Shown: in pieces, positions 11,131 through 26,167 of the stretch
Numbering within the stretch: position 1 is the stretch's first letter
Layout of the letters: each line of letters starts with the position of its first letter
NCBI GenBank assembly: GCA_019359395.1
Contig: JAHHHK010000048.1
Span: 1 to 36,629 of the forward strand
Direction: 5' to 3'
Length of the DNA stretch: 36,629 bases
Origin: Komarekiella atlantica HA4396-MV6
GTDB taxonomy: Bacteria; Cyanobacteriota; Cyanobacteriia; Cyanobacteriales; Nostocaceae
The notes under the pieces: model-generated
Told to the model about the DNA's origin: nothing
Database searches by the model: none
The model's input: only the letters and a program-made list of their open reading frames with translations
Position numbers and translations under genes: made by a program

Positions 11131-12453
11131 TCACAAACTAAATTCCGCTGCATTATCTTCATCCACATCTTTCCCCGCAGCAGTAGGTTTAAATTTAGAA
11201 CCATGAATTAATTCACCAAACGAAATTCCTGGATTTTGATGAATAATATTCAACAAACTCATAAAATCCCGCACAATTTCCCCTGGCGTAAGTAATGCTT
11301 CTGCACCCAAGCGATTGACAATTTCTTGGATAAACTCCTTTAACTCAGGATTTGTCAAAACTTTGTCATACCCAAAATTGACAGCATGAATCTCAGTTAA
11401 GCGCTGCAAAAGCGTGAGGATTTCTACCTCACTTAACGGGTTTAGCCGAATTACTGGCCCTAAATATTCTTGAACACCAGCTTGTGTGACAAAACGGCTT
11501 TCTTTTGTACGCCTTTGCCAAGCTTGGTCTGCAAAAAGTCCTCGTTTGGGGTCTTCTAAAAATCTTGTTGTTCCACCGATAACAATGCCAAGATGTTCTG
11601 CTTTGCACTGCATAGTATCATTAAACATTGCTAGGAGTCTGTTATAGTTTTTTTCACGAGTAACTGTAGTTGAGATTTGGTATATATGTACGGCTTCATC
11701 AAGCAACACTAAAAGTCCTTTATAACCAATCTCAGCCACAAACTTAGCAAATAATTTAATGTAGTCATACCAACTATCATCATCAATAATAACTCGTACT
11801 CCCAAGGCTGCTTTTGCCTCAGTTTTAGTACTAAATTCTCCACGAAACCAGCGCATTGCAGCGTTTTTCAATTCATCATCATCTGACCGATAGCCACGCC
11901 AATAAGCAATAATAACGCTGCCAAAATCGAACCCGTGAACTAAGTCTTCAATATACTGAACTACTTCCCTAATTTTGGCTTCAACTCGGTCATCAAAACC
12001 GTCATCATTGGGACGCATTCCAGTTTCTTGAACTACTTCTTGTTGGATTTTATTAATCCATCCTTCCAAAATTGAGACTAAAGCACCACCATCAGGACGA
12101 GTTTTTGTAGCTAGGCGGCTCATTAGTTCTCGATAGGTTGCTACACCTTCATTATTACTTCCTGCCAGTCGGCGTTCGGAAGATAAATCAGCATCAGCTA
12201 CTACAAACCCTTGCTCCATAGCACGGTTACGAATCATTTGTAGCAGAAAGCTTTTGCCTGAACCGTAATTACCAATTATAAAACGAAATGACGCTACACC
12301 TTCGGCAATGTCGTCAAGATTTTGTAATAAGCTTTTAAGCTCCTTTTCTCGACCTACTGCTATATGTTCAACTCCCACTCTTGGTACTACCCCCGCACCA
12401 AGAGAGTTTATTAAGGCAGTAGATATTTTTTTCGAGAGTTTGAGCTTTGCCAT
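11131..12453 (-). CDS. DUF2791 (BrxC/BrxD-like) P-loop ATPase
   Basis: This 440-residue P-loop NTPase has Walker A GNYGSGKS (61-68), used in the phrase FIIGNYGSGKSFLLQMIRN, and Walker B LLVLLDEA (247-254). A sensor-like segment (HLGIVIGGTTRFLED) and GLFADQAWQRR follow. These are signatures of the DUF2791/BREX ATP-binding family (BrxC/BrxD relatives), which occurs in phage-defence and Ter-linked DNA-processing clusters. It is the last gene of a minus-strand run with the TerB-C coiled-coil gene (96-bp gap) and a DUF815 ATPase. No helicase, methylase or protease partner follows; downstream lie repeats and a HicB remnant. The start is ATG at 12453 with an AGG-containing upstream site. The family call is firm, the role is inferred. 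Confidence 0.82.
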   Translation of the reverse strand: MAKLKLSKKISTALINSLGAGVVPRVGVEHIAVGREKELKSLLQNLDDIAEGVASFRFIIGNYGSGKSFLLQMIRNRAMEQGFVVADADLSSERRLAGSNNEGVATYRELMSRLATKTRPDGGALVSILEGWINKIQQEVVQETGMRPNDDGFDDRVEAKIREVVQYIEDLVHGFDFGSVIIAYWRGYRSDDDELKNAAMRWFRGEFSTKTEAKAALGVRVIIDDDSWYDYIKLFAKFVAEIGYKGLLVLLDEAVHIYQISTTVTREKNYNRLLAMFNDTMQCKAEHLGIVIGGTTRFLEDPKRGLFADQAWQRRTKESRFVTQAGVQEYLGPVIRLNPLSEVEILTLLQRLTEIHAVNFGYDKVLTNPELKEFIQEIVNRLGAEALLTPGEIVRDFMSLLNIIHQNPGISFGELIHGSKFKPTAAGKDVDEDNAAEFSL

Positions 12454-12549
12454 TTATTAAACCTCACTTTATTTAAAATGCAGAGGCGCGTAGCTAGAAG
12501 TTAGGGCTTATGCTTACCTCACTAATAATCTAACAACGGCAATAATAAT

Positions 12550-13893
12550 TTAATTTGATGAGGCGTGTCTAGCCATGATAATTTCATACATTTCGATCAT
12601 TTTTCTGACGTTTGTGATATGCTCCTGATAAACTTCTGGAAATTCTAAATTAGGCTCAATTATTAATTCACCAATAGTATCACTTGCCCGCTCGTTTATA
12701 GAATCGATTAAGAGATTTGGCATGGTAATATTTGCTTCGGCAATTTGTTTAATAGCTACTTTGGGATTATCTTGCTCGACTATAGCTTTTAATACTTGCA
12801 TTTCATGCCCTGGTAATTTTTCCAGAAAATTATTCCATTCATCAGGTAAATTTTCTGAGATATCGACTTGAGTATTTATTAGTTCTAAGGGTTCAATTAA
12901 TTCAGAAAAAGTAAACAAGTCAAGATTCTCTCCCTGTGCGTCTTCAGGCAACGTTACCGGCGGATTAATTGTTTCTACTTGTTGGAGTAATTCCCAAACT
13001 TGATTTTGCAAAAGATCTCGTTCTTCTTGCAATAATGTAATTTGCTCTTGTAAATGATTGAGTTCAACTTTCTGAGACGCGATTTGAGTTTGAAAGGAAT
13101 TCAGGCTAGCTTCTATATTTGCTCTGGCATTGGTTGTAGCTACTAATAATTGATTTTCTTTAGTTGCCTCAGTTTCTAGCTCTTGAATTTTGATTCGCAG
13201 TTCGTGCAATTTTTCTTCTAATTGAGGTTTGAGTCTACCTAACAGAGTTAAATTGCTTTCAAGTTCTCGTTTTTCTTGCTGGAGTTCACAAATTTGAGTT
13301 TGTAACTGAGTGATTTCAGCACGAGATGTATTATAATTCAACTCTAGACGACGTTTTTCAGCTGTAAGAGTAGAAAAAGAATTGTTCAGTTCTGTTTTAC
13401 TTTTATCAAGATGATAAAGTTCAGTTTTCAGGTTGTTGATTTCAGCGTCTAACTGCTTTCTTTGCCCTGCAAAAGTGCTTAACTCTCGATTGAGACTATC
13501 CCTTTGATTACGGCATTCTGTAACTTGATTTTGCAGTTGCTTCGATTCTGCATATAATAAACTACGATGTTCTTCTATTTGGTTGATTTCTCTGACAATA
13601 CGGAACTTCAATCCCTCCATCTCTTTAATTCGTTTGCGGAGAGAACCTAAAACAAGCATTTCATGATTTCTGCGTCGCTTATCTACAAATAACGCTGCTG
13701 TATATGTAGCAAGTACGGTAATTACACCTGTGATAAAGGCTTTATTGAAATCCCAGCTTGGGACGAGACTGAGCCCAAAACTCACACTGAAGGCTACTAT
13801 GCCTAAGATAAATCGATTGCTTACCATTACTGATTGCATATTGCTTATTTTTAAGGTAGTTAAGTTATCAGAATAAGTAGTTATTAAGGTCAT
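12550..13893 (-). CDS. Membrane-anchored coiled-coil protein with TerB-C-like C-terminal domain
   Basis: The 447-residue protein has two closely spaced hydrophobic segments (about 27-45 and 52-70). A long coiled coil (about 78-310) is rich in Gln, Glu and Leu heptads (QLQTQICELQQEKRELESN). A compact C-terminal domain (about 330-440) reads LPDEWNNFLEKLPGHEMQVL, then EANITMPNLLIDSINERASD and TIGELIIEP. That last part matches the TerB C-terminal domain (TerB-C) found in tellurite-resistance-like stress systems. Both ends of the coil should be cytoplasmic, making a membrane-tethered spacer that presents TerB-C. Its neighbours are a DUF815 ATPase upstream and a DUF2791 ATPase downstream, and TerB-C/DUF2791 pairs are known from Ter-linked predicted defence clusters. 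Start: ATG at 13893; ATGs at codons 19 and 23 are alternatives that keep both membrane segments. Confidence 0.75.
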   Translation of the reverse strand: MTLITTYSDNLTTLKISNMQSVMVSNRFILGIVAFSVSFGLSLVPSWDFNKAFITGVITVLATYTAALFVDKRRRNHEMLVLGSLRKRIKEMEGLKFRIVREINQIEEHRSLLYAESKQLQNQVTECRNQRDSLNRELSTFAGQRKQLDAEINNLKTELYHLDKSKTELNNSFSTLTAEKRRLELNYNTSRAEITQLQTQICELQQEKRELESNLTLLGRLKPQLEEKLHELRIKIQELETEATKENQLLVATTNARANIEASLNSFQTQIASQKVELNHLQEQITLLQEERDLLQNQVWELLQQVETINPPVTLPEDAQGENLDLFTFSELIEPLELINTQVDISENLPDEWNNFLEKLPGHEMQVLKAIVEQDNPKVAIKQIAEANITMPNLLIDSINERASDTIGELIIEPNLEFPEVYQEHITNVRKMIEMYEIIMARHASSN

Positions 13894-13986
13894 TACCCCT
13901 CACATAGTTGTTTTGAAATCTCCGATTTTAAGTATTTGTGCATAAGACTGTTTTCTTAATAACAAAAAAGTTAAATCACCAGCAAA

Positions 13987-15351
13987 TTAATTTTCAGTTT
14001 GTGTATCGGACGTATTGTTATTTGCACTAAATAGTGCTATATCTGCTTTTAAAAAATCAACAAATTGCCGTGCCGTGCGACCAGAACGACCGTTGTGCCG
14101 AGTTGCCCATTGTAATGCTTGATATTCTAAATCTTCTGGCTTAATATTAATTTCAGCTTGTGCTGCTAGATGCCCGACAATTTTTAAATAAGTTTTCTGA
14201 TCGGCTGGTTCAAAGGTTAAGGTTAAACCAAAGCGATCGCTAAATGAAAGTTTCTCTTGCATAGTATCCCATGCATGGATTTCTTCGTGATCTTTAGGAG
14301 CAGGTCTATCGACAAAAAACTCTCGAATCAAGTGGCGGCGGTTGGAGGTGGCGTAAACAACTGCGTTTTGAGGTCGCGCTGTTAAATTACCTTCTAAAAC
14401 TACTTTGAGGGCTTTAAAAGCATCATCATCTTCTTCAAAAGAAAGGTCATCGACAAAGATGATAAATTTTTGTGACACTCCCCGCAGATGTTCCACAATT
14501 TTTGGTAAATCTTTTAAATCAGATTTTGTCACTTCCAACAGACGGAGCTTGCGATGATTATATTCATTCAATAAAGCTTTTACCAAAGAAGATTTTCCCG
14601 AACCGCGACTACCATAAAGTAATACATGCAGTGCCATTTCTCCTGATAATAAAAACTCTGTATTTTTGAGCAAAGCATCTCGCTGAGATTCGTAACCTAC
14701 AAGTGTAGTAACTTGAACTGGATCGTAATACGGAATACCGACAAACTGCCCAGATTGCCAGCGGAGAGCGCGATATTCTGCAAATAAACCTGAGCCAAAT
14801 TGCTGATAATAAGCTGCTAAATCTTCTACAGCATTACCCCAATTTTCTAAATGTTGTAGAGATGCAATGAATCTTGTACCTACTCCTACCTCTTTCAAGT
14901 CTTGATACCAAACAACTGGTGAAATTGGCAGATGAGCTACAGTTTGTACCCACTCACTCAAAGCAGCGCTGCTACATTCATAAAGACTCTGCAATACTTG
15001 TAAATCATGTTGAGCTGCTGTTACTAAAGCTGGAGGCAAATCTTTAAATTCTCGCACTTCAGCCATCCTTGTAAAAGGGTTCTCTGAGATGAGAATTTGA
15101 GTAATTAGGTAGTCCTCCCAATTTTGATTTCTAGCAGCCAAAGCGTGGAAGTAAGTACCGTAGGCTTGGAGGCAACCCCGCGCATCGGCATCAGTGTAAC
15201 GTATAGCTTGCAACAGGTCAAGAAATGCCACCCCTACTTCGCCTTGGAGGACAGATTGGTACAGTAAAAGTGACGCTGCTTGGCGCTGGAGAAATTGAAC
15301 CTTTGTGTAGGAGGAAGTACTTGCCGTTGGCATCGCTTGATTATCCATCAA
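13987..15351 (-). CDS. DUF815-family AAA+ ATPase
   Basis: A helical N-terminal half (about 15-200) precedes an AAA+ module. Walker A is GSRGSGKS (247-254), Walker B FIIFVDDLSFE (296-306), a sensor 1-like Asn sits in YATSNRRHL, and an arginine-rich stretch lies near SDRFGLTLTF. The C-terminal lid region includes NGRSGRTARQFVDFL. This matches the DUF815 ATPase family, which is widespread in cyanobacteria but has no settled function. It is first in a minus-strand series, 93 bp before the TerB-C coiled-coil gene. Whether it is functionally part of that unit or only a neighbour is unknown. The start ATG at 15351 is followed directly by a second ATG. Confidence 0.85.
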   Translation of the reverse strand: MMDNQAMPTASTSSYTKVQFLQRQAASLLLYQSVLQGEVGVAFLDLLQAIRYTDADARGCLQAYGTYFHALAARNQNWEDYLITQILISENPFTRMAEVREFKDLPPALVTAAQHDLQVLQSLYECSSAALSEWVQTVAHLPISPVVWYQDLKEVGVGTRFIASLQHLENWGNAVEDLAAYYQQFGSGLFAEYRALRWQSGQFVGIPYYDPVQVTTLVGYESQRDALLKNTEFLLSGEMALHVLLYGSRGSGKSSLVKALLNEYNHRKLRLLEVTKSDLKDLPKIVEHLRGVSQKFIIFVDDLSFEEDDDAFKALKVVLEGNLTARPQNAVVYATSNRRHLIREFFVDRPAPKDHEEIHAWDTMQEKLSFSDRFGLTLTFEPADQKTYLKIVGHLAAQAEINIKPEDLEYQALQWATRHNGRSGRTARQFVDFLKADIALFSANNNTSDTQTEN

Positions 15352-15887: not shown

Positions 15888-16178
15888 ATGCGAGTATCCC
15901 TTTTCTTAGATGGTGCAAACTTCTTCTATATGCAGAGAGATTGTTTGAGATGGTGGACAGACCCAAAGAAAATTTTGGATTTTGTAAGAACAAAAGGCGA
16001 ATTGATTGATGCGTTTTATTATATGGGTGTAGATGCTCCTCCAGAAGCTAGACAGGAAGCTTACTTAAAAGCATTGCCAACTATGGGCTATACGTTGGTC
16101 ACAAAAACTTTAAAGAATATTCTGCTTTCTGATGGGACTACAAAACAAAAAGCAAACTTAGATGTTGAAATTAATTAA
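15888..16178 (+). pseudogene. NYN-domain (LabA/DUF88-like) protein, 3' half missing
   Basis: The 96 residues match the N-terminal half of cyanobacterial NYN-domain proteins. They include RVSLFLDGANFFYMQRD with the first catalytic-type Asp8, DAFYYMGVDAPPEARQE and TLVTKTLK, ending KANLDVEI. In full-length relatives (about 170-200 residues) the next part brings the VSGDGDF motif with further acidic residues of the PIN-like nuclease site. Here the frame hits TAA right after LDVEIN. The stop is only three bases from the convergent yoeB stop, and the missing half is not found on the far side of the toxin-antitoxin module. The protein is probably inactive as a nuclease. Upstream, ATG at 15888 follows a purine-poor leader without a clear ribosome-binding site. 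Confidence 0.7.
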
Positions 16179-16181
16179 TAG

Positions 16182-16496
16182 TTAATAATGATAACGAGCT
16201 TGTAAAAAATTTATTTCATCATCTTTTACAAGATATACAATTCTATGTTCTTGTGTTAAACGGCGAGACCAAGTATTAGGATCTAAATATTTTAGAGGTT
16301 CCGGCTTACCTTTCCCCTTAAAAGGATCTCGGCAAGTCTCTTTGACAAGATCCAAAACTTTAAGGGTAACTCGTTGATCATTTTCCACCCAAAATTTTAA
16401 GTCTTCTAAAAATTCAGGTTGGAATACTGTTTTTCTTTGCTTTGGAGTTGCTGGAATTTCTTGTTTTGATTGGTTTTTAAGGTTCTTCTTGGTCAA
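16182..16496 (-). CDS. yoeB: YoeB/Txe-family mRNA interferase toxin
   Basis: This ribosome-dependent endoribonuclease toxin has 104 residues. The YoeB core starts at about residue 24 (VFQPEFLEDLKFWVEND) and contains GKGKPEPLKY with Glu66, WSRRLTQEHRIVY with Arg85, and the C-terminal ARYHY with His103-Tyr104. These correspond to E. coli YoeB Glu46, Arg65, His83 and Tyr84, so the active site is complete. The N-terminal 20-odd residues are a basic extension not found in E. coli YoeB; an internal start could remove it. The frame overlaps the 3' end of yefM by 20 bp, the usual coupled antitoxin-toxin order. Confidence 0.93.
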   Translation of the reverse strand: MTKKNLKNQSKQEIPATPKQRKTVFQPEFLEDLKFWVENDQRVTLKVLDLVKETCRDPFKGKGKPEPLKYLDPNTWSRRLTQEHRIVYLVKDDEINFLQARYHY

Positions 16497-16770
16497 ATCC
16501 TAACTCCTTACTAAGATCATCCAAGCTTTGAGATTTCACAACTCCTGATTTAGCTCGATTTAAAGCTGTTAGCAAACGTTCAGCGTTACGGGGGGAACGT
16601 AAAAGATGAGCAGTTTCTAGAATACTAGAAAGTTCATCAACAGATATTAAAGCTACATTTTCAGCATTACGACGTGTAATGATTACAAAATCGCATTCTG
16701 AAGTAACTTTATCGCACAGTTCAGACAGCTTTTCTCGTGCTTGTGTGTAAGTATAAGTAGCAGAAACCAT
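16477..16770 (-). CDS. yefM: YefM/Phd-family antitoxin
   Basis: The 97-residue antitoxin pairs with YoeB. Its N-terminal DNA-binding half (MVSATYTYTQAREKLSELCD, then FVIITRRNAENVALISVDEL) is classic Phd/YefM. The C-terminal part (about 60-97) is the toxin-wrapping tail. The ATG at 16770 is preferred over the TTG at 16779 because YefM proteins begin with a short strand of exactly this type. The gene precedes yoeB with a 20-bp overlap. Three TGTACA boxes lie 40-80 bp upstream (see 16810-16851), implying autorepression by YefM and the YefM-YoeB complex as in E. coli. Confidence 0.92.
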   Translation of the reverse strand: MVSATYTYTQAREKLSELCDKVTSECDFVIITRRNAENVALISVDELSSILETAHLLRSPRNAERLLTALNRAKSGVVKSQSLDDLSKELGFDQEEP

Positions 16771-16809
16771 AGGTATCAAAACTTTCCTTTGTACTTGTAA
16801 ATTGAATTA

Positions 16810-17547: not shown

Positions 17548-18780
17548 ATGGTATTATCACTGTCTTCTCATAACGTTATCCAGTATTTGCAAGATGCAGG
17601 TCTGTGTAGCTCAGAAGATGGCGCAGCAAATGAATCTGAGTTACCACATAGTAAGAATTGCAATTTACTGGTGACTCTGGCAGATAACCGTAAACTGCTG
17701 GTTAAACAAGAACGTAGCATTAACAATGATGGAATGCCCCACGAGTTTTTTAATGAGTGGTTATTTCATCAGTTACTTCAACAGTTTCCGGTTCTAGGCA
17801 ATATTTCTGCGATCGCATCACTAGTGCTGCACTTTGATGAGGAAAATTCTATCCTTGTCCGCAATTACCTCAATGACTATCTGGAACTTGGGAGAGTATA
17901 TCACAGAAATGATATTTTTCCACCAGAAATTGCCTCTGCGATCGGCACTACTCTGGCTGGGCTGCATCGCGCAACCTTCAACCGCCGAGAATATAGTGAT
18001 TTTATGGCAACTGCTCCTCAAGGACAGTTTCGCTATGGCTATTACAACCCGGCACAAGGAATAGGGTCAATTAGTTCAGAGATTTTTGGTACAGTTCCCA
18101 CTGATGCGCTGAAATTTTATGTTCTCTATCAGCGCTACGAGAGTTTGGAATCAGCAATTGCTGATTTAGCAAATGAGTGGCAGCCTTGCTGCTTAACACA
18201 TAACGATCTAAAGTTAAATAACATTTTGGTTCATTCCAGATGGGAGCAGCTAGACAATTGCCTGGTACGACTAATTGACTGGGAAGCTTGCTCTTGGGGA
18301 GATCCGGCATTTGATTTAGGGACTTTACTAGCAAGCTATTTAGAAATTTGGCTATCTAGTCTCGTGGTAGATCCCACCATTGAATTAGAAGAATCTTTGC
18401 ATTTGGCGATGACACCTCTAGAGGTTTTACAACCTTCAATAGTTGCTCTAATTAAAGCTTATCTCAATGCTTTTCCGATGATTTTGGAGTACCGTCGTGA
18501 TTTTATGTTGCGCGTTATTCAATTTGCAGGGCTAGCACTGATTCATCAAATTCAGGACATGATTACGTGCCGCAAATACTTTAATAATGCCGACATCTGT
18601 ATGCTTCAAGTTGCTAAAAGTTTGCTCACTATGCCTGAGCAATCTGTACTGACTATTTTTGGTATTTCCGAGTCAGAAATCTTCACAACTGTGGGAAACT
18701 TTCATAAAGTTACTCAGCCAGAAAAAGAGCAGCAAGTACTTCGCATTTATTATGAAAAAACTCGGCTGCGTGGTTGTTAA
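17548..18780 (+). CDS. APH-fold phosphotransferase, likely protein/peptide kinase partner of HopA1-like gene
   Basis: This 410-residue kinase-like enzyme has the aminoglycoside phosphotransferase fold. It has an N-lobe lysine in KLLVKQE (Lys53), the catalytic loop HNDLKLNN (His218, Asp220, Asn225) and the metal-binding IDWE (Asp244) followed by GDPAFDLG. All catalytic residues are present. Downstream, 259 bp on and on the same strand, is a HopA1-family gene. An APH-fold kinase beside a HopA1-like lyase is the arrangement of class V lanthipeptide (LxmK/LxmY-type) and thioamitide gene clusters, where Ser/Thr side chains are phosphorylated and then eliminated. A role as a peptide Ser/Thr kinase is therefore plausible. 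Small-molecule phosphorylation, as in antibiotic resistance enzymes, remains an alternative. Confidence 0.82.
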   Translation: MVLSLSSHNVIQYLQDAGLCSSEDGAANESELPHSKNCNLLVTLADNRKLLVKQERSINNDGMPHEFFNEWLFHQLLQQFPVLGNISAIASLVLHFDEENSILVRNYLNDYLELGRVYHRNDIFPPEIASAIGTTLAGLHRATFNRREYSDFMATAPQGQFRYGYYNPAQGIGSISSEIFGTVPTDALKFYVLYQRYESLESAIADLANEWQPCCLTHNDLKLNNILVHSRWEQLDNCLVRLIDWEACSWGDPAFDLGTLLASYLEIWLSSLVVDPTIELEESLHLAMTPLEVLQPSIVALIKAYLNAFPMILEYRRDFMLRVIQFAGLALIHQIQDMITCRKYFNNADICMLQVAKSLLTMPEQSVLTIFGISESEIFTTVGNFHKVTQPEKEQQVLRIYYEKTRLRGC

Positions 18781-18790
18781 TAGCATATAG

Positions 18791-18833
18791 CAGAACAATT
18801 TAAAAGATAATTTGGATATTTTGAATTGTTCTG
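18791..18833 (+). terminator. Hairpin after the kinase gene
   Basis: A perfect 10-bp inverted repeat, CAGAACAATT (18791-18800) and AATTGTTCTG (18824-18833), is extended outward by imperfect AGCA/TGCT pairing. It lies 10 bp past the kinase stop. No long T run follows, so it may be a weak terminator, an attenuating or stabilising hairpin between the kinase and HopA1 genes, or a protein-binding site. The rest of 18781-19039 holds no gene. Confidence 0.45.
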
Positions 18834-19039
18834 TGTGCTATTTATTATGAAATTATACTTCAGGAAAAATTAAAAGGTTCTTTAAGAGAAAAATAAGTTT
18901 ATACAAACAAATATTAATAATTTATCCGTGGTGTAAATCCTAGATTATACTTTTTAAGTAATCTGAGAAACAACAAATATATTTGCCACAAAATGATTGT
19001 TTGATTCTAAATTATGAGTTTTGAGTTCTGAATTGATTA

Positions 19040-20125
19040 ATGCTAGATTCTTCTACCAATCAACTGCTAACTACATTATTCGACATTGTTACCAATATCC
19101 AGATTGAGTCAAATTTTTGTATTTACCATCCCAATTACCTACCCTTTGCTCTGCCGACTAAAGTAGCTGACAGATTTCAGCAAACCCCCTCGGCTTTGCA
19201 GCATAAGTATCTCACTCTGCTGTTGCGAAACTTCCTCTATGGAATTTATTACAATGGCTCGCTGCAAACTACTTTGGCAGTCAATAAGGAAATTACAAAT
19301 CACACGCAGTGCCATAATTTAGAAAACGATTCCGCCTTGGGAATTGATTGGGAATTTTATGAGCAACTCCATGAGTGTAATCATGGTATCGGTTATTTTG
19401 ACTCTAGTTGGCGGGTGTTGCGGCAAGAGCCTGATGGGAGTATGGCTGTGACTAAAGGCGGTTTGACACTTTATGTTGAGCCAGACTGTCATCTCAAACC
19501 TAATATTAAATCTGCCAAAGCGGGTGAGCTAGTAGCCATCTGGATGCCCAAAAATCGACTGCAAAATGGTTGTTATGTAGCAGTTAGCAATGTTGGACAA
19601 GAACGGCAAAACCCAGATGCGGATTTGGGAGCAGGGAGAATCTATTTTAATTTCACACCATTTGGTGCGATCGCGCTCATGGAAAGCCTAACTCAGCAAC
19701 TAAATGCTGCTGCTATTCCTTTCAGCTTTCAGGTTCTCTACAATCCCTCTGCATACGAACGCTATGACTCAGGGGTACTCTTCTTTGAACTCCACGACTA
19801 TCCAGCCATCCGCGAAATTCTACAGGCTGTTTATACTGAACATCAATCCTATTTTCAAACCGAAATACCCTTGTTCACAAAGTTTTTAGCACCAGGACTA
19901 AGTTTAGCTGAGGAACCAACCCAAAAATTTGCGGCGCAAGAGAGTTTTGGGATGAACCGTTGTCAAATTGTAGCTAATGCTTTGTTGGAGGCTTGGCAAA
20001 AAGGTAAGAATGCAATGGAGGAGCGGATGAGGGTAATTGACCAACACTTTGCCCAGCACTCAATTGATTTGCAGCATCCTTATCTAAATCCCAGTTCTGA
20101 AGATATATATTACCCTTTAAATTAG
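19040..20125 (+). CDS. HopA1-family protein (predicted phospho-Ser/Thr lyase)
   Basis: The 361-residue product matches the family named after the type III effector HopA1. It has an N-terminal helical part (about 1-100) including HKYLTLLLRNFLYGIYYNG, then a mixed domain with GWRV-like SSWRVLRQEPDGSMAV, KGGLTLYVEPD, AGELVAIWMPKNRLQNGCYVAV and AGRIYFNFTPFGAIALM, ending in a conserved helical tail. There is no secretion apparatus here, so this is not an effector. In class V lanthipeptide and thioamitide clusters HopA1-like proteins act with an APH-fold kinase to eliminate phosphate from phospho-Ser/Thr, and the kinase gene just upstream repeats that pairing. The lyase activity is inferred from this context. 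Start: ATG at 19040. Confidence 0.78.
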   Translation: MLDSSTNQLLTTLFDIVTNIQIESNFCIYHPNYLPFALPTKVADRFQQTPSALQHKYLTLLLRNFLYGIYYNGSLQTTLAVNKEITNHTQCHNLENDSALGIDWEFYEQLHECNHGIGYFDSSWRVLRQEPDGSMAVTKGGLTLYVEPDCHLKPNIKSAKAGELVAIWMPKNRLQNGCYVAVSNVGQERQNPDADLGAGRIYFNFTPFGAIALMESLTQQLNAAAIPFSFQVLYNPSAYERYDSGVLFFELHDYPAIREILQAVYTEHQSYFQTEIPLFTKFLAPGLSLAEEPTQKFAAQESFGMNRCQIVANALLEAWQKGKNAMEERMRVIDQHFAQHSIDLQHPYLNPSSEDIYYPLN

Positions 20126-20373: not shown

Positions 20374-20820
20374 ATGTCTTTCACTTATAATCGAACAGTT
20401 CACTTTCAAGATACTGATGCTGCTGGAGTCGTTTATTTTGCTAATGTTTTGAGTATTTCTCATGAAGCTTACGAAGATTCTCTAGAGAGATCAGGTATTA
20501 ACATTAAAGAATTTTTCACTAGCTCATCTGTAGCTTTTCCGATTGTTCATGCTAGTGTGGATTTTTTGCGTCCGATGTTTTGCGGTGATAAGTTAGTGAT
20601 TAGCTTAATGCCCCAAAAGTTAGGTATTGATAAGTTTGAAGTTGCTTACGAAATTTCAGTTGGTGATGTGGTTGTTGCTAAGGCAATTACTAGACACGTT
20701 TGTATTGAGGTGAGTAGTAGAAGTAAGCAGGAATTGTCTGATGAGATTATTCGGTGGTTGGAAACGAACCGCAGAGACGCAGAGGGCGCAGAGAGAAGAA
20801 AGTCAAGAGAGATTATGTAA
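20374..20820 (+). CDS. 1,4-dihydroxy-2-naphthoyl-CoA thioesterase (4HBT hotdog fold)
   Basis: This enzyme hydrolyses DHNA-CoA to DHNA, the step before MenA in phylloquinone synthesis. The 148-residue hotdog protein has the 4HBT active-site motif [11 protein letters not shown] with catalytic Asp15, followed by HEAYEDSL and the [18 protein letters not shown] strand pair. This is the pattern of the Synechocystis DHNA-CoA thioesterase. It sits beside menE, menC, menA and menF, which supports the assignment over a generic acyl-CoA thioesterase. The last 16 or so residues ([16 protein letters not shown]) are written by a GCAGAG(A/G)-type repeat and are probably not part of the conserved fold. The 3' end overlaps the convergent menE by 18 bp inside that repeat. 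Confidence 0.88.
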
Positions 20821-22356
20821 GAATTTTGTGGCTATTTGCTGTAGTTTTTGACGGTTGATTTTACCTTGAGAGTTGCGGGGTAAGCTTTGCTGGGGAATCC
20901 AATGTTTGGGAATTTTAAATTTGCTAAGTTTGTCTTTGAGTAGGGTTTGAATTTCTAAGGTCGAGATATTTGGGTTTTGGGGAATATAAATGGCTGTTAA
21001 TGCCTGTCCCCAGTGTTTATCTGGTATGCCAATAACACAAACATCAATCAGCATTTTAGTTGCTAATATAGCTGACTCAATTTCTGCTGGATAGATGTTT
21101 TCACCACCTGTAATAATTTTATCGCTATTACGCCCGATAATATTTAAATGACCTTGGTCGTCTAAAAAACCTAAGTCATCTACTTGGAGATAATTTTGTA
21201 TTTTATTAGTTTGATAATAGTAACCAAGAGCTAAAGATTTAGCCTGAATAGTAATATTTCCTATTTGATTTGAATTTAAAATTTCTCCTTGCTGATTGCA
21301 AATTGTTACATGAGCATGGGGGAGAATCTGACCACTGCTTATTTTACCTTTAAGAAAATCATCGGGTTTAAGGGTGGCAATTTGAGAGGCGGTTTCTGTC
21401 ATCCCATAAGTAGGTGCTAATCGGATGTAATGGAATCTTGCCTTTTCTAACAGTTCATTCCATGCTGGCGCACCTCCTAAAAGTACAGTTTGAAATTGGG
21501 TTAACCACTCAGTTAATTCCGGGTTTTGTAGAAGACGTTGTAACTGCGTAGGTACTAAAGATAGGAAAAATTTTGATTGTTCAATATTGAATATTTGACC
21601 AGATTCTACTGCTTTGAATGGCTGAATAACTAGCTGTCCTCCGGTTGTGAAGGAGCGCATAAATTGCATCAAACCACTGACGTGATATAGCGGTAATACA
21701 CAAAAACAGTTGACTTGTTTTAGTTGAAAATATTCTGTAAATCCTTGGACAGATGCCATTAGAGTTTCCCAAGTGTGCATGGCAAATTTAATCTCTCCCG
21801 ATGAGCCACCTGTGGGAATCATGATCAGTGCTGTTAGCGGATAGCTCTGGTTTAGCCCGTGCTGAGTGCTGTAAAGCCCTGCGGGCATGGCTGCGCTTAG
21901 AGCGGATAGCTCTGGTTTAGCCCGTGCTGAGTGGGAAAGTGGGGGAGTGTGAGATAAGGGAGAAGGGGTAGTCTTTTCTTCCCAGTCCCCAGCCCCCAGT
22001 CCCCAGTCCCCAGTCCCCAGTCCCCAGTCCCTAGTCCCCAGTCCCCAGTCCCCAGCCCCCAGTCCCCAAATAATGTCTGGCTGCACTAAATCAAAGACTT
22101 GTTGCCATTCTTGTTTTCCCCAATCGGGGTTACAGAGAAAAACTGAACAATTAGCTGCACAAGCAGCAATAAAACCTGCTAAAAACTTTATTGGTTCACG
22201 TTCAGCTAAGATGATTTTTGGTGGCGTTCCATATACTGATAAGTATGTTAGTTGTAAATATAATTCTTCAGCTATTTTCTGAAACTGAAGGCTGTTATGA
22301 CCAATCAGCCATTCGTGATCAGCATGTTTTTTAAGATAGTCTAAAGGTCGTTCCAT
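20803..22356 (-). CDS. menE: o-Succinylbenzoate-CoA ligase with large repeat-derived insert
   Basis: This ANL-family ligase activates o-succinylbenzoate with ATP and CoA in phylloquinone synthesis. Motifs: P-loop [13 protein letters not shown] (about 179-191), [23 protein letters not shown] and the C-terminal [13 protein letters not shown] with the catalytic-type Lys. At 517 residues it is longer than usual. The excess lies between PDIIW (about 97) and LTALIMI (about 175) and consists of a heptamer-encoded DWGLGTG-like repeat plus a segment carrying a 33-bp duplication. The insert precedes the P-loop at a variable linker, so activity may be retained. The gene is 17 bp downstream of menC on the same strand, so the two are probably co-transcribed. 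Confidence 0.92.
21836..21933 (-). repeat. 33-bp direct duplication inside menE, read in two frames
   Basis: Identical 33-bp copies occupy 21836-21868 and 21901-21933, 65 bp apart. Because 65 is not a multiple of three, the copies are translated in different frames: [11 protein letters not shown] from one and [13 protein letters not shown] from the other. Both are open. Confidence 0.9.
21981..22064 (-). repeat. Twelve tandem heptamers inside menE
   Basis: Twelve 7-bp units of CCCAGTC (variants CCCAGCC and CCTAGTC), 84 bp in total, encode a glycine- and tryptophan-rich stretch of period seven residues (GLGTGDW). Twelve units keep the frame; gain or loss of one or two would shift it. Confidence 0.93.
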
Positions 22357-22373
22357 AGACTTTGAAGCCAGGT

Positions 22374-23405
22374 TTATTTGTGTTCAAAAAAGTGGGTGAT
22401 ACCAAAACCAACTGCTCTGTTATGTTGGGATAATTCTGCTGCTAGTTGGAGTGCTGCTTGTCTTGCGATCGCAGTTTCAAATACTGATGAAAATACAGCA
22501 TCAATTTTATGCTGTTGACAAAATTGCCGTAGACGAGATGGTGAACCGACTATCGCAGGCTTAATAACAAAAATTTCTCGCCAACCTTGTTGATAACAGG
22601 TGACGAGTTGGTTAAATGTGGCGACAGACTCATCTAAAGCGATGGCAGTGCCATAAAACATACTCAATTCCAACATCCTCTCCAGTTGTCCAACAGGTAG
22701 CGGTTGTTCGATAAATTCAATTTCTACAGATATTTCTTGATTTGCCTTGATATTGTCGCAAGTCCACAGCCATAAGTTAGCCTCCTCATAGCTGAGTCCG
22801 CCGTTAGCATCTAATCGCAGTTTTGTAGAAGTTGGTAAGCTATGCGTAAGTATGTCGAAAATTTCCAGTTCATGAGCGATCGCATACACGCCAATTTTCC
22901 ATTTAAACGTACGATATCCCTGCTCCCACAAAGTTTCCCATTGACTTAAAGCCGCTTCCCCAGCGGGTAATAAAGCACTATAAGTGAGAGATTGAGCATT
23001 GAACATTGGAGAATGGACATCGGGAACAGACAAGGGAGAGCCTTCTTCAATAATTCTTCCTTGTCCCCAGTCCCCATTGCCCCTTATCCCCAAAGAGCGC
23101 CATGTGTTCCCCAGTCCCTCTAAAGCTGACTCAAAGCCAAATTGACAAGCAGGTAATTCATCTGGAATGGAGAAAATTGTCTCGTCTGTGATTTCCTCTG
23201 GTAGTTGGCGACAAAAATCTAAAGCTTGTTCTATGGTTTCGGAACCAAACCAGCTAATAGGGGCAATTTCTCCCCAGCCGACTCTACCTATTTCATCGGT
23301 GAGGTTGATGATAATACCATCTCGGATATCCCAAATACCATGACTGGTAGTTAAAGATTGCACAAACCTACGTCTATAGGGACGAAATTTAAATCTGTAA
23401 GTCAC
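22374..23405 (-). CDS. menC: o-Succinylbenzoate synthase
   Basis: This enolase-superfamily enzyme dehydrates SHCHC to o-succinylbenzoate. Its catalytic and metal residues are visible: Lys168 and Lys170 in TFKWKIG, Asp199 in LRLDANGG, Glu233 in FIEQP, Asp258 in ALDES and Lys282 in VIKPAI. The N-terminal capping domain includes GWGEIAPISWFG. Between ESALEGL (98) and LTYSALLPAGEA (about 140) is a roughly 40-residue stretch with Gly/Asn/Asp/Trp sequence (GIRGNGDWGQGR). It is encoded by about four degenerate CCCCAGT-type heptamers near 23054-23090, apparently a repeat insertion in a surface linker. The gene lies 17 bp before menE and 149 bp after menA on the minus strand. Confidence 0.92.
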   Translation of the reverse strand: MTYRFKFRPYRRRFVQSLTTSHGIWDIRDGIIINLTDEIGRVGWGEIAPISWFGSETIEQALDFCRQLPEEITDETIFSIPDELPACQFGFESALEGLGNTWRSLGIRGNGDWGQGRIIEEGSPLSVPDVHSPMFNAQSLTYSALLPAGEAALSQWETLWEQGYRTFKWKIGVYAIAHELEIFDILTHSLPTSTKLRLDANGGLSYEEANLWLWTCDNIKANQEISVEIEFIEQPLPVGQLERMLELSMFYGTAIALDESVATFNQLVTCYQQGWREIFVIKPAIVGSPSRLRQFCQQHKIDAVFSSVFETAIARQAALQLAAELSQHNRAVGFGITHFFEHK

Positions 23406-23447
23406 TAAATGTCATTTGTTATTTGTCCTCTCTTACAAAGTTCTGTT

Positions 23448-23500
23448 CGCCGGAAGCCGGCGCTCAGACTTTGCGCTTTGTCATTTGTCATTACAAATGA
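23448..23500. repeat. Hairpins between menA and menC
   Basis: A GC-rich hairpin, CGCCGG-AAG-CCGGCG (23448-23462), is followed by an AT-rich inverted pair, GTCATTTGT and ACAAATGAC. Several TCATTTGT copies fill the gap. This is a dispersed repeat within the men gene series that may attenuate transcription or protect mRNA. Confidence 0.45.
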
Positions 23501-23554
23501 CCAAGGACTAATGATTAAGGACAGCCGCCAAAAATCTTACAATTTATAGAGTTA

Positions 23555-24451
23555 CTAAAGCATAAATCCCAAACCTAACAGTAAGCAACTCCAGAAATGC
23601 ACGGCTACGGCGATGAATTTGCAGTTACTAACTTTTTCTGGCTGGTGATGATTTTTTTGGACATGACGACACAGTTTGATGGCAAAGGGTAAACTCAACC
23701 AACTCAGCAATGTCCAAACTGGAAAAAATCCCCACAGCACAAATACCAAGGTGAGGGGATAAATACTAGCAGTGAACCAAATTAGTAGTTGAGCAGCCTT
23801 TGCAGTTCCCAGACGGACGATAGGCGATCGCTTGCCGGCGGCTATGTCATCCTTAACTTGGTGAAAGTGTGAGCAAAACAAAATTAAACTTGTGACGATG
23901 CCGACAATTATTGAGGCTGCTAAACTCGTCATTGACCAAGTTTGGGTTTGACTGTAGTATGCTGCTGCTACTGCCAAGGGGCCAAAGGCGAAAAAGCAAA
24001 TAATCTCGCCTAAACCTTGATATCCTAAGCGAAAGGGCGGCCCTTGGTATGTGTAGCCTAATGCACAGCAAAGCAGAATTATGCCAATGATAGTTGGGTC
24101 TTGTTGCCAAGTGGCGATCGCTAATATGCCCAGCAATCCCAAACCTAAACACAAATTTCCTAACCAAAATATTAATGACTTATTGCCAGTTAAGTTCACC
24201 AGAGAATGGTGTTTATTTTGATCAATCCCTGTTTCTGAATCAAAGACATCATTACTGATATTTTCCCACGCCAGAATTAAAATTGCTGCACCTACAAAAG
24301 TAGAAAATACTGCACCATTAAAAATTTTAGTTTCGGCAAATGCTACTGCTGTTCCTACCCAAATGGGCATAATGGCAACGCTGTACATCGGCGGTTTAAT
24401 CGCCGCCATCCATAACTTAGTCTTGGGATATAAAATCTGCTTAGTAGTCAT
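23555..24451 (-). CDS. menA: 1,4-dihydroxy-2-naphthoate prenyl(phytyl)transferase
   Basis: This UbiA-family membrane prenyltransferase joins DHNA with the phytyl (or polyprenyl) diphosphate chain, making the precursor of phylloquinone. The 298-residue protein has about eight or nine membrane helices. The two Asp-rich motifs are present: NDVFDSETGID (67-77) and the second around Asp201-Asp202 in QVKDDIAAGKRSP. GYTYQGPPFRLGYQGLGE is a signature of cyanobacterial MenA. It is the first gene of the minus-strand menA-menC-menE series and divergent from menF, so the 306-bp gap between menA and menF probably holds both promoters. Confidence 0.93.
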   Translation of the reverse strand: MTTKQILYPKTKLWMAAIKPPMYSVAIMPIWVGTAVAFAETKIFNGAVFSTFVGAAILILAWENISNDVFDSETGIDQNKHHSLVNLTGNKSLIFWLGNLCLGLGLLGILAIATWQQDPTIIGIILLCCALGYTYQGPPFRLGYQGLGEIICFFAFGPLAVAAAYYSQTQTWSMTSLAASIIVGIVTSLILFCSHFHQVKDDIAAGKRSPIVRLGTAKAAQLLIWFTASIYPLTLVFVLWGFFPVWTLLSWLSLPFAIKLCRHVQKNHHQPEKVSNCKFIAVAVHFWSCLLLGLGFML

Positions 24452-24757
24452 CAGTCGTGATTAATTAAATTGCCCGAATATTACTCACACGTTAGATTTT
24501 ATGATTTACAGAGACACTAGATACTAGTAAGGTACAAAAAACTGCTAATTTTATCATGGCTGTTTAACCTTCTGTTACTAACACCCACCCTCATGTTGCA
24601 GATCAAAACTAAGCTTGGCTTGTCAAGGTCTTGGAACACCACAAACAAAGCAAACTACACGCTGGTGAAATGGCGACTTAATATGTTACCTGTAGAAATA
24701 CGACCACGATTAATTACACTTTAGGAAGTTAACTTAAAAAAAATTTACTTTAGATCC
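24452..24757. other. Divergent menA-menF intergenic region
   Basis: About 306 bp separate the divergent starts of menA and menF and should contain both promoters. A 43-codon plus-strand frame (24593-24724) and a neighbouring frame broken by three TAA codons (24556-24732) are present, but I recognise neither. I see no riboswitch-like structure. Confidence 0.5.
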
Positions 24758-26167
24758 ATGACAGTTTCACCATGTCGTAGTAACTCCTTTGTAGAGCACA
24801 AAGATTTATATCAATTTCTGTTAACAGTGCAAGAAAAGTGCCTCAAAAATAATAGCAGGCAAATTGTCAGTATCTCCCAAGAGATTAACTTGGTTGATCC
24901 TTTAGTTGTATTGAATAAACTTACACAAGTAAATGAAATAAATTTTTACTTTGAGCATAAAGGTAAAGGAGAAGCGATCGCGGCAATTGATACTGTAACA
25001 AAATTGCAAATTGATGGCATAGAACGTTTTACTAAAGCTGAATATTTTATCAAATCTTGTCTAAAAAATATAATTAACTTTGGTAACGCTAATCAACCTT
25101 TTTCTGGGCCTCACTTTTTTTGTTATTTCAGCTTTTTTGACAAAAATACCCAAACAGATTATCCATTTCCATCTGCTACCGTTTTCTTACCAAGATGGCA
25201 AGTAGCTGTGAAAAATCAGCGTTGTATATTAGTAACGAATACAATTATCAATAGCAGTGTAAATATTCAAAGAGTATTGCAGACTGTGCAGGGTAAAATT
25301 GAATTTCTCCAGTCTTTAGAATCTTATCCCCATATTGATTGTTTTCCGGCATTCCGCAAGAAATCCGTCACAAATGCAACTCAATTTAAACGTTCAGTAT
25401 CTTCTGTTCTGGAAAAAATCCGCTCTAGCCATTTAAGTAAGATTGTCCTAGCAGATACGCTAGATGTAAGGTCAAGTAGTCATTTTAACTTATTCAAATC
25501 ATTAAATAATCTCAGGCAAATACATCCTAATTGTTATATTTTTTCCACAAGTAATGGGAAAGGGCAAAATTTTATTGGTGCAAGTCCAGAACGATTAATT
25601 AGTATTAATAATCAGCAGTTAATCACCGATGCTTTGGCTGGTTCTGCACCACGAGGTAAAACACCAGCTGAAGATGCTGCCAATGCCAATCGTTTATTAA
25701 ATAGTGAAAAAGAAAGACATGAACATTTGCTAGTAATTGATTTCATTACTCAACGTTTATCCCAGCTAGGTGTATTACCCCAAGTATTAGCACCGCGCTT
25801 GCGACAATTATCTAATATCCAGCATTTATGGACACCAATCAGCGCCATCGTTCCTGCCAACGTACACCCGTTAAAAATTGTCGCTCAACTGCATCCTACA
25901 CCAGCTGTTGCTGGTGCAGCACGAGATGTTGCCTGTGCCGAAATTCGTCGCTATGAAAGCTTTGAGAGGGGATTATATGCCGCGCCTCTAGGTTGGATAG
26001 ACTCTGAGGGGAACTGCGAGTTTATTGTCGGAATTCGTTCAGCACTGATAGATGGCGATCGCGCTAGACTTTACGCAGGTGCCGGTATTGTCGCTGGTTC
26101 TGATCCTGATAAAGAGTTTGCAGAGGTGCAGCTCAAACTTCAGGCTTTACTGAAAGCATTAGTGTGA
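24758..26167 (+). CDS. menF: Isochorismate synthase
   Basis: This chorismate-utilising enzyme converts chorismate to isochorismate, the first step of phylloquinone synthesis. The 469-residue protein has a variable N-terminal half and the conserved catalytic half: SKIVLAD with Lys228, FIGASPERLI, DALAGSAPRGKT, SEKERHEHLLV, HPTPAVAGAARD, RGLYAAPLGWID and the C-terminal YAGAGIVAGSDPDKEF. These give the Mg-binding Glu residues and the isochorismate-specific pattern without glutaminase or pyruvate-lyase domains. The start is ATG at 24758. It is followed 26 bp later by a DUF1995 gene on the same strand, so a two-gene transcript is likely. Confidence 0.93.
   Translation: MTVSPCRSNSFVEHKDLYQFLLTVQEKCLKNNSRQIVSISQEINLVDPLVVLNKLTQVNEINFYFEHKGKGEAIAAIDTVTKLQIDGIERFTKAEYFIKSCLKNIINFGNANQPFSGPHFFCYFSFFDKNTQTDYPFPSATVFLPRWQVAVKNQRCILVTNTIINSSVNIQRVLQTVQGKIEFLQSLESYPHIDCFPAFRKKSVTNATQFKRSVSSVLEKIRSSHLSKIVLADTLDVRSSSHFNLFKSLNNLRQIHPNCYIFSTSNGKGQNFIGASPERLISINNQQLITDALAGSAPRGKTPAEDAANANRLLNSEKERHEHLLVIDFITQRLSQLGVLPQVLAPRLRQLSNIQHLWTPISAIVPANVHPLKIVAQLHPTPAVAGAARDVACAEIRRYESFERGLYAAPLGWIDSEGNCEFIVGIRSALIDGDRARLYAGAGIVAGSDPDKEFAEVQLKLQALLKALV

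What the first reader, a model, noticed from the sequence alone, without database searches (positions are those of the whole stretch)
17548..20125. Stand-alone APH-kinase / HopA1-like pair resembling a split RiPP dehydratase
A complete APH-fold kinase (His218, Asp220, Asp244) is followed by a HopA1-family protein. That pairing is known from class V lanthipeptide and thioamitide pathways, where the kinase phosphorylates Ser/Thr and the HopA1-like lyase eliminates phosphate. Here there is no cyclase, decarboxylase, transporter or obvious precursor, and the neighbour is the phylloquinone cluster. This could be a housekeeping or trans-acting dehydratase, or an unknown peptide pathway.
Basis: partly seen in the sequence, partly recalled or inferred. 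Interest (0 to 1): 0.72.

Follow-up and report, generated by a model that had tools for sequence, protein, structure and literature searches.

The report
Conserved kinase with disabled peptide lyase
Nearly every sequenced genome in one large group of filamentous cyanobacteria carries one copy of a gene pair that looks like a peptide-antibiotic dehydratase whose second enzyme has lost its key catalytic residue, whose peptide substrate gene is not found, and whose kinase has gained an almost invariant tail; this suggests an antibiotic-making machine turned into a housekeeping kinase of unknown target.

Summary
In detail: an intact APH-fold kinase (17548-18780) is followed by a HopA1-family protein (19040-20125). 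By profile both resemble LxmK/LxmY (class V lanthipeptides). The pair is not a stray RiPP cluster. It belongs to a distinct orthologous group ("W-type"): a W kinase was found, as one match, in 211 of 217 genomes of the window's GTDB family; full-profile matches of that strength were seen in no other family of a 388-genome order sample. W-type differs from the related K-type pairs of the same genomes in three ways. (1) The lyase's general-base Lys (CaoY Lys219) is Gln/Glu/His in 35 of 35 W-type proteins; it is Lys in 61 of 62 K-type. (2) By one motif, 43 of 59 K-type loci sit beside GG-leader precursors but 0 of 35 W-type loci do; 7 of 9 genomes with only a W pair had no hit to that precursor family. 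(3) The W kinase has a C-terminal extension ending in near-invariant RLRGC. Best reading: a domesticated class V dehydratase with an active kinase, a silenced lyase used as a binding subunit, and a functional tail. "Housekeeping" fits; "dehydratase" probably does not. Target unknown. Linkage to phylloquinone genes is widespread, not obligatory.

The parts
17548..18780 (+). W-type kinase, APH fold, LxmK-like, 410 aa; K53, E70, H218-N-D220, N225 and D244 kept
   Evidence: PF01636 9.4e-13, NF038156 1.6e-20; conservation over 35 orthologues
18661..18777 (+). C-terminal part of the kinase (residues 372-410) beyond the end of the LxmK profile match; variable linker, then YYxKTRLRGC at the very C-terminus
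   Evidence: LxmK profile match ends at residue 368; last 5 residues 0.98 mean pairwise identity against 0.32 in the linker, with different synonymous codons and stops; the W-conserved columns 401 and 406-410 are gaps in 54 or 55 of 55 K-type kinases
19040..20125 (+). W-type HopA1-family protein, LxmY-like, 361 aa, presumed lyase-deficient
   Evidence: PF17914 1.7e-63; LxmY 9DK1 by sequence profile and, weakly, by model
19730..19732 (+). codon of Gln231, at the place of the catalytic Lys of LxmY-type lyases (CaoY Lys219)
   Evidence: alignments; Q31 E2 H2 of 35 W-type against K61 E1 of 62 K-type
20374..20820 (+). hot-dog (4HBT_2) thioesterase next in line, probably the DHNA-CoA thioesterase of phylloquinone synthesis (recalled); frequent neighbour, not shown to belong to the system
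   Evidence: PF13279 1.4e-17; same strand and within 300 bp of HopA1 in 29 of 35 W-bearing genomes of 31 genera, but found in only 38 of 80 named loci
20803..26167 (.). phylloquinone genes menE (-), menC (-), MenA-like ORF (-) and isochorismate synthase-like gene (+)
   Evidence: MenE and MenC by profile; chorismate-binding enzyme; MenA was not scanned, its label rests on position and recall; synteny

Best explanation
A domesticated class V (LanK/LanY-like) dehydratase. An ancestor of the window's family had an ordinary kinase/HopA1 RiPP dehydratase. One copy lost its precursor peptide, replaced the general-base Lys of the lyase by Gln, gained a C-terminal tail ending RLRGC on the kinase, and became fixed as a single-copy gene pair. 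Most likely mechanism (inferred): the two proteins form a heterodimer like LxmKY; the kinase phosphorylates Ser/Thr of a protein, peptide or its own tail; the HopA1 subunit, which keeps most of the pocket arginines but not the base, holds the phosphorylated product without eliminating phosphate. The conserved tail is a docking, pseudosubstrate or autosubstrate element. Shown: orthology, distribution, residue loss, tail constraint, no precursor found nearby. Not shown: kinase activity, lyase inactivity, complex formation, target.
For: LxmY (9DK1) is the only PDB sequence match of the HopA1 profile at E 0.1 or better (identity of 9DK1 from passages of PMC12141560). Lys219 of CaoY is essential (K219A leaves only phosphorylated peptide; PMC9486802, parts 1 and 2 of 5 read); that site is non-Lys in 35 of 35 W-type proteins and in 77 of 78 of the named set. 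The Tyr236 equivalent is also relaxed: Tyr in 19 of 35 W against 49 of 55 K. Kinase motifs are kept. W is one clade with 100% SH-aLRT, nearest to tailless kinases (quick tree). 211 of 217 family genomes have one W kinase. W proteins are about as conserved as several men enzymes: median identity to the window 71.3% (HopA1) and 73.2% (kinase) over 30 genomes, against 70.9% MenE, 71.6% MenC and 82.4% MenA over 20-24. The tail is constrained at protein level. Precursor motif in 0 of 35 W loci against 43 of 59 K loci.
Against: No biochemistry. One natural W protein (L166) has Lys at the site and four of the named set have Glu, so loss of activity is not certain. The CaoY Arg187 equivalent is kept in 30 of 35, which could mean retained chemistry. 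The kinase profile found no LxmK chain in the PDB at E 0.01, only other APH-fold kinases, and scores far below the LxmK cut-off. One named locus (L201) has the W kinase but no HopA1 match in the roughly 5 kb downstream, so the partner is not strictly obligatory. AlphaFold models were poor (pLDDT 52.7 kinase, 64.6 HopA1; TM-score to LxmY only 0.38), so pocket and tail geometry are untested. Thr405, the candidate phospho-acceptor in the tail, is missing in 3 of 35.
Confidence: 0.55

Rival explanations
1. Still-active dehydratase: the HopA1 subunit eliminates phosphate with another base (Glu, His, water or a shifted residue) and the pair dehydrates an unlinked peptide or a cellular protein.
For: The fold and most pocket residues are conserved (R241 34 of 35, R200 30 of 35); a few orthologues carry Glu or His, and one carries Lys.
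Against: Gln, the residue in 31 of 35 and 72 of 78, is not a base; Lys219 replacement kills CaoY (PMC9486802); no precursor found in cis, and no hit to the known leader family in 7 of 9 W-only genomes.
Confidence: 0.18
2. Self-modifying kinase: the C-terminal tail (YYEKTRLRGC) is a precursor fused to its own kinase, phosphorylated at Thr405 in cis and clamped by the pseudo-lyase, or even turned into a Thr-Cys thioether.
For: By the profile end, the tail lies just beyond the C-lobe region that binds the leader peptide in CaoK and LxmK models (PMC9486802 and PMC12141560 passages); T405 32 of 35 and C410 35 of 35; tail and Lys loss mark the same clade.
Against: T405 is Pro or Ala in three genera that keep RLRGC, and two orthologues end in Phe but keep Thr, so Thr and Cys do not go together as a ring would need; the tail has low confidence in a poor model.
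Confidence: 0.15
3. Phylloquinone enzyme: the pair acts in the men pathway, for example as a small-molecule kinase working with the adjacent thioesterase.
For: Same-strand thioesterase within 300 bp in 29 of 35 W-bearing genomes, overlapping by a few bases in one.
Against: The thioesterase was found in only 38 of 80 named loci; of the 41 loci without it that hold a HopA1 gene, 37 have at least 1.5 kb of sequence downstream, and one cluster of 24 other ORFs lies downstream instead. Full-profile W matches are limited to one family, whereas phylloquinone is general in cyanobacteria (recalled).
Confidence: 0.07
4. Decaying relic of a RiPP cluster.
For: Replaced catalytic Lys and no precursor found; HopA1 gene not found in L201.
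Against: Kept in 211 of 217 genomes, conservation near that of MenE and MenC, near-invariant tail with synonymous codon change.
Confidence: 0.03

Closest known systems
LxmK/LxmY lexapeptide dehydratase (class V lanthipeptide; PDB 9DK1-9DK3) and CaoK/CaoY of cacaoidin
   Same: Kinase plus HopA1-family protein as neighbours; HopA1 protein matches LxmY by sequence profile (E 4.8e-6) and by a moderate model (Foldseek E 4.8e-10, TM-score 0.38); kinase matches the NCBIfam LxmK profile along most of its length.
   Different: Catalytic Lys absent; no precursor, cyclase, decarboxylase or exporter found beside it; kinase has an extra conserved tail; profile score far under the LxmK cut-off (73.5 against 315 bits); no LxmK chain among PDB hits of the kinase profile.
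Cyanobacterial K-type pairs (putative class V-like RiPP loci; PMC9486802 speaks of type-B LanA, all cyanobacterial)
   Same: Nearest relatives; up to 5 per genome and also in the window's genome.
   Different: K-type keep Lys (61 of 62) and 43 of 59 loci hold precursors with an LFxDSESFL-type leader and GG site; one in this genome also has M16 peptidase, HlyD and a C39-peptidase ABC transporter nearby. Identity with the type-B LanA of that paper was not checked (its supplement was not read).
Thioamitide TvaC/TvaD-type pairs and sprPT/sprH3 (PMC7794033 passages; PMC9486802)
   Same: Same kinase/HopA1 pairing; PMC7794033 notes distantly similar homologues in Cyanobacteria.
   Different: Those sit in RiPP clusters; the W pair does not.
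HopA1 effector family (PF17914; Pseudomonas syringae structures 4rsw, 4rsx)
   Same: Pfam family; weak fold match (E 0.3 and 0.06).
   Different: No secretion context seen; paired with a kinase.

Membership tests
Class V lanthipeptide synthetase (LanK/LanY) | APH-fold kinase with intact HxD...N and D motifs | tested here: met
Class V lanthipeptide synthetase (LanK/LanY) | Kinase recognised as LxmK (curated cut-off 315 bits, or LxmK chain in the PDB) | tested here: not met
   73.5 bits; no LxmK chain at E 0.01. Five tailless cyanobacterial kinases tested also fail the cut-off (67.6-104.3 bits), so it does not separate W from K
Class V lanthipeptide synthetase (LanK/LanY) | HopA1-family partner encoded next to the kinase | tested here: met
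   35 W loci by construction (W was called by the score of the kinase beside a HopA1 gene); independently, a kinase-first search found HopA1 in 78 of 80 loci; in L150 only its first residues match before the contig ends, L201 has none
Class V lanthipeptide synthetase (LanK/LanY) | Catalytic Lys (CaoY Lys219) in the lyase | tested here: not met
   Gln231 here; 0 of 35 W-type have Lys, 1 of 78 in the named set
Class V lanthipeptide synthetase (LanK/LanY) | Pocket Arg residues (CaoY Arg187, Arg229) | tested here: met
   R200 and R241 in the window protein; 30 of 35 and 34 of 35 in W. The CaoY sequence itself was not seen; mapping rests on the LxmY alignment and residue spacing
Class V lanthipeptide synthetase (LanK/LanY) | Precursor peptide gene | tested here: not met
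   0 of 35 W loci with the leader motif; 7 of 9 W-only genomes with no leader-family hit, 2 with weak hits. A precursor of another kind, unlinked, is not excluded
Class V lanthipeptide synthetase (LanK/LanY) | Phosphorylation and elimination of a substrate | not testable with these tools
   needs protein
HopA1 family PF17914 | Profile score over cut-off | tested here: met
   214 bits against 22.7
Phylloquinone (men) enzymes | Stable linkage with and co-distribution with the men genes | tested here: not met
   linked to the thioesterase within 300 bp in 29 of 35 genomes, but thioesterase found in only 38 of 80 named loci; full-profile W matches in one family only

The most novel reading that the evidence does not exclude
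A RiPP dehydratase was converted, once, into a core two-protein phospho-switch of heterocyst-type cyanobacteria: the kinase phosphorylates its own RLRGC tail or a docked protein, and the dead lyase has become a reader that traps the phosphorylated residue instead of eliminating it. This would be a pseudoenzyme-based signalling module built from antibiotic machinery.
Probability: 0.2. Interest if true: 0.85.

Novelty: new variant of a known kind. Interest (0 to 1): 0.62.

Why it matters
[quoted passage not shown] Here is a near-universal cyanobacterial pair that fits that handle but is probably not a RiPP cluster, so it is likely to be mis-mined. If the reading is right, it is also a case of a natural-product enzyme recruited to core cell biology, with a defined residue change and a new conserved tail, in organisms some of which are genetically tractable; knock-out and mass spectrometry could test it directly. 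My searches of the held library listed no paper describing this pair; most subscription journals are not held.

Tried and rejected
alr2463: Table 5 of PMC4365693 (section 13, part 1 of 2 read) lists an 'aminoglycoside phosphotransferase' in the core of six heterocyst formers, with a 9.8-fold change at 12 h of nitrogen starvation. I hoped it was the W kinase. If gene order is like that of PCC 7120, alr2463 is another gene, so I make no expression claim.

Loss of nitrogen fixation explaining absence of W: not supported; G017, a complete genome without a W kinase, has two strong PF00142 (NifH family) matches of 458 and 370 bits, like its relatives; that Pfam family also holds ChlL (recalled).

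A tail conserved for DNA reasons: rejected, since codons and stop codons vary while residues do not. Tail motif in other proteins of this genome: the pattern gave 3 matches, of which only the window one reads R-L-R-G-C-stop; the backwards control gave 6, so the count itself is not above chance.

A structure-based pocket and tail test failed: the alignments were too uniform and the models poor. Only the HopA1 model was compared with the PDB. I ran no phylum-wide search and did not scan the viral or metagenome collections. BLAST clusters of small ORFs near W loci were the TM14 gene, the YefM gene and, by my reading, antisense or shadow frames. The K precursor cluster (56 loci) is single-linkage and partly noise; I quote the motif count (43 of 59).

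Dropped rows and limits: two short PF17914 matches (G011:C297, G054:C76) were not fetched. 7 of 62 K rows (six without an assigned kinase, one with a partial one) are left out of the K counts (hence 55); five of them do have a kinase by tblastn. In one search a regex missed 3 rows; one search replaced it. L150 and L201 gave no HopA1 ORF (hence 78). W was called by a kinase score of 500 bits or more against the window kinase. In one search at most 8 first-look candidates per genome were scored, at most 4. Match lists were cut after the best ones. The samples overlap.
Full report
WHAT IS THERE. The window holds an intact 410-aa APH-fold kinase (17548-18780) and a 361-aa HopA1-family protein (19040-20125) on the + strand, 259 bases apart. 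The kinase matches the NCBIfam LxmK model over residues 29-368 but far under its cut-off (73.5 against 315 bits); five tailless cyanobacterial relatives are also far under it, and the kinase profile found other APH-fold kinases but no LxmK chain in the PDB at E 0.01. The HopA1 profile's only PDB match at E 0.1 or better is 9DK1-9DK3 chain B, which PMC12141560 (passages) identifies as part of the LxmKY lexapeptide dehydratase. A moderate model agrees in ranking (9DK3 E 4.8e-10, but TM-score 0.38; HopA1 effector structures at E 0.06 and 0.3).

TWO KINDS OF PAIR. PF17914 was found in 41 of 60 relatives. I fetched 97 distinct HopA1 ORFs with flanks (two short matches were left out) and found two groups. 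The W-type, to which the window belongs, has 35 members, one in each of 35 of the 36 genomes of the window's family in that sample (31 genera; five genomes are of the window's genus), and none in the 24 genomes of 24 other families. The K-type has 62 members, 0 to 5 per genome. A quick tree of 95 kinases makes the W-type one clade with 100% SH-aLRT; its nearest neighbours are tailless kinases (G026 L114, G385 L244), though two end branches are long and many deep forks are open. In 217 genomes of the family, 211 have one W kinase match at E 1e-160 or better; the six without are two incomplete genomes (54% and 72%), three fragmented drafts, and one complete genome, G017. One of the drafts, G208, does hold a HopA1 protein scoring like W-type. 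In 388 genomes of the order, at least 71 of them of this family, the full-profile matches of 595 bits or more are all in this family; two near-W kinases elsewhere (592 and 574 bits) stop before the tail. One of these has a HopA1 partner with Arg at the Lys site; the other's HopA1 gene is in two pieces. By record titles the group includes Nostoc, Anabaena, Dolichospermum, Scytonema, Tolypothrix, Calothrix, Nodularia and Komarekiella; the nearest named kinase, 98% identical, is from Komarekiella delphini-convector, family Nostocaceae. That these are the heterocyst formers is my knowledge, not a test.

THE LYASE HAS LOST ITS BASE. In CaoY, Lys219 is the proposed general base, K219A leaves only phosphorylated substrate, and Arg187, Arg229 and Tyr236 also belong to the site (PMC9486802, parts 1 and 2 of 5 and passages). 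LxmY aligns a Lys to window Gln231 both with the single sequence and with the profile. At this site W-type proteins have Gln 31, Glu 2, His 2 of 35; K-type Lys 61, Glu 1 of 62. In 78 named W loci: Gln 72, Glu 4, His 1, Lys 1. The Tyr site is also relaxed in W (19 of 35 against 49 of 55), whereas the Arg sites are largely kept (30 of 35 and 34 of 35). So the change is specific, old and nearly fixed. Loss of lyase activity is the natural inference, not a result.

THE KINASE IS INTACT AND HAS A NEW TAIL. Catalytic residues are conserved in 34 or 35 of 35. The W kinase runs about 40 residues past the end of the LxmK profile match. The linker is variable (mean pairwise identity 0.32), but the last five residues are 0.98 identical: L and R in 35 of 35, G 34 of 35, C the last residue in 35 of 35, with varied synonymous codons and all three stop codons. 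In the named set 78 of 80 end in Cys and 2 in Phe. The W-conserved tail columns 401 and 406-410 are gaps in 54 or 55 of 55 full-length K-type kinases.

NO PRECURSOR FOUND. K-type loci are a positive control: 43 of 59 carry ORFs with a leader such as MANITLSELHAAGSELFQDSESFLNELSD..GG, and one K locus of this very genome has an array of them with an M16 peptidase, PPIase, HlyD and a C39-peptidase ABC transporter near the pair. By the same motif 0 of 35 W loci have one. Of nine genomes that have a W pair and no other HopA1 gene, seven have no hit to the leader family at E 0.01; two have weak hits (best 7.6e-7 and 2.8e-5); five of five K-bearing controls have 4 to 19. An unlinked precursor of another kind is not excluded.

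NEIGHBOURS. The gene order DUF815 - TM14 - kinase - HopA1 - thioesterase - menE - menC - menA - isochorismate synthase is widespread. The thioesterase follows on the same strand within 300 bp in 29 of 35 genomes, is farther in three and not found in three, one of these on a short contig. In named loci it is found in 38 of 80. Of 41 loci with HopA1 but no thioesterase, 37 have 1.5 kb or more of downstream sequence; a cluster of 24 unrelated ORFs lies downstream in these, on the opposite strand in the 12 shown. The pair therefore survives relocation as a two-gene unit. HopA1 is not strictly obligatory: locus L201 has the W kinase, thioesterase and men genes but no HopA1 match. Median identity to the window is near that of MenE and MenC and below MenA.

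INTERPRETATION. The simplest account is domestication of a class V-like dehydratase: precursor lost, lyase base lost, kinase kept, tail gained, then fixation in one family. I think the HopA1 subunit now serves as a binding partner of the kinase and may hold phosphorylated residues; this is inference. Rivals are an active dehydratase with another base, a self-modifying kinase whose tail is its substrate, and a phylloquinone function. The first is disfavoured by Gln at the site and by missing precursors, the second by Thr405 being absent in three genera, the third by relocation and by the restricted distribution.

STATUS IN PRINT. PMC7794033 (passages) reports distantly similar kinase/HopA1 homologues in Cyanobacteria; PMC9486802 reports putative cyanobacterial type-B precursors. 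I saw no description of the lyase-deficient, tailed, precursor-free orthologue group in the listings; HopA1 together with heterocyst gave no paper.

Noticed in passing
window 21981-22068: A (CCCAGTC) heptanucleotide repeat of 12.6 copies lies inside the menE reading frame and adds a GDWGLG-type stretch to the protein.
   Followed up: partly
window 15888-16779: A 96-aa NYN-domain ORF stops just before a YoeB/YefM toxin-antitoxin pair (on the other strand) between the TM14 gene and the kinase. The NYN ORF was seen in no other W locus; the toxin-antitoxin genes were seen only in loci of the window's genus there.
   Followed up: partly
window 11131-15351: BrxC/D-like ATPase matching PADLOC SngB at E 1.1e-177, a TerB-C protein weakly matching SngA (1.8e-15), and a DUF815 AAA protein stand in a row: perhaps a Shango-like defence set (name recalled); the helicase partner was not looked for.
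   Followed up: partly
L032 (G000:C24): This genome also holds a full-looking class V-like RiPP locus: an array of near-identical precursors, kinase/HopA1 pair with catalytic Lys, M16 peptidase, PPIase, HlyD and C39-peptidase ABC transporter.
   Followed up: partly
G000:C68:210966-211424: A fifth HopA1 copy in this genome is interrupted by a stop codon; described only.
   Followed up: no
L244 (G385, another family): A kinase close to the W clade without the tail, whose HopA1 partner has Arg at the Lys site: a possible intermediate.
   Followed up: partly
L201 (Dolichospermum sp. FACHB-1091): W kinase with thioesterase and men genes but no HopA1 match in the locus: a natural kinase-only case worth a look.
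   Followed up: partly
L042, L066, L071, L074, L104, L105, L108, L120: A conserved roughly 85-110 aa ORF follows HopA1 on the same strand in eight K-type loci (a KYxWAC motif), perhaps an unrecognised part of these RiPP loci.
   Followed up: no
G020:C2, G211:C76: A PF00142 (NifH family) gene is split into two pieces about 9 kb apart in these genomes, as if an element sits inside it.
   Followed up: no
plasmid hits H3, H10, H11, H13: HopA1-like sequence lies in proteins annotated as LanC-family lanthionine synthetases in Deinococcus, Pseudonocardia and Rhizobium plasmids.
   Followed up: no
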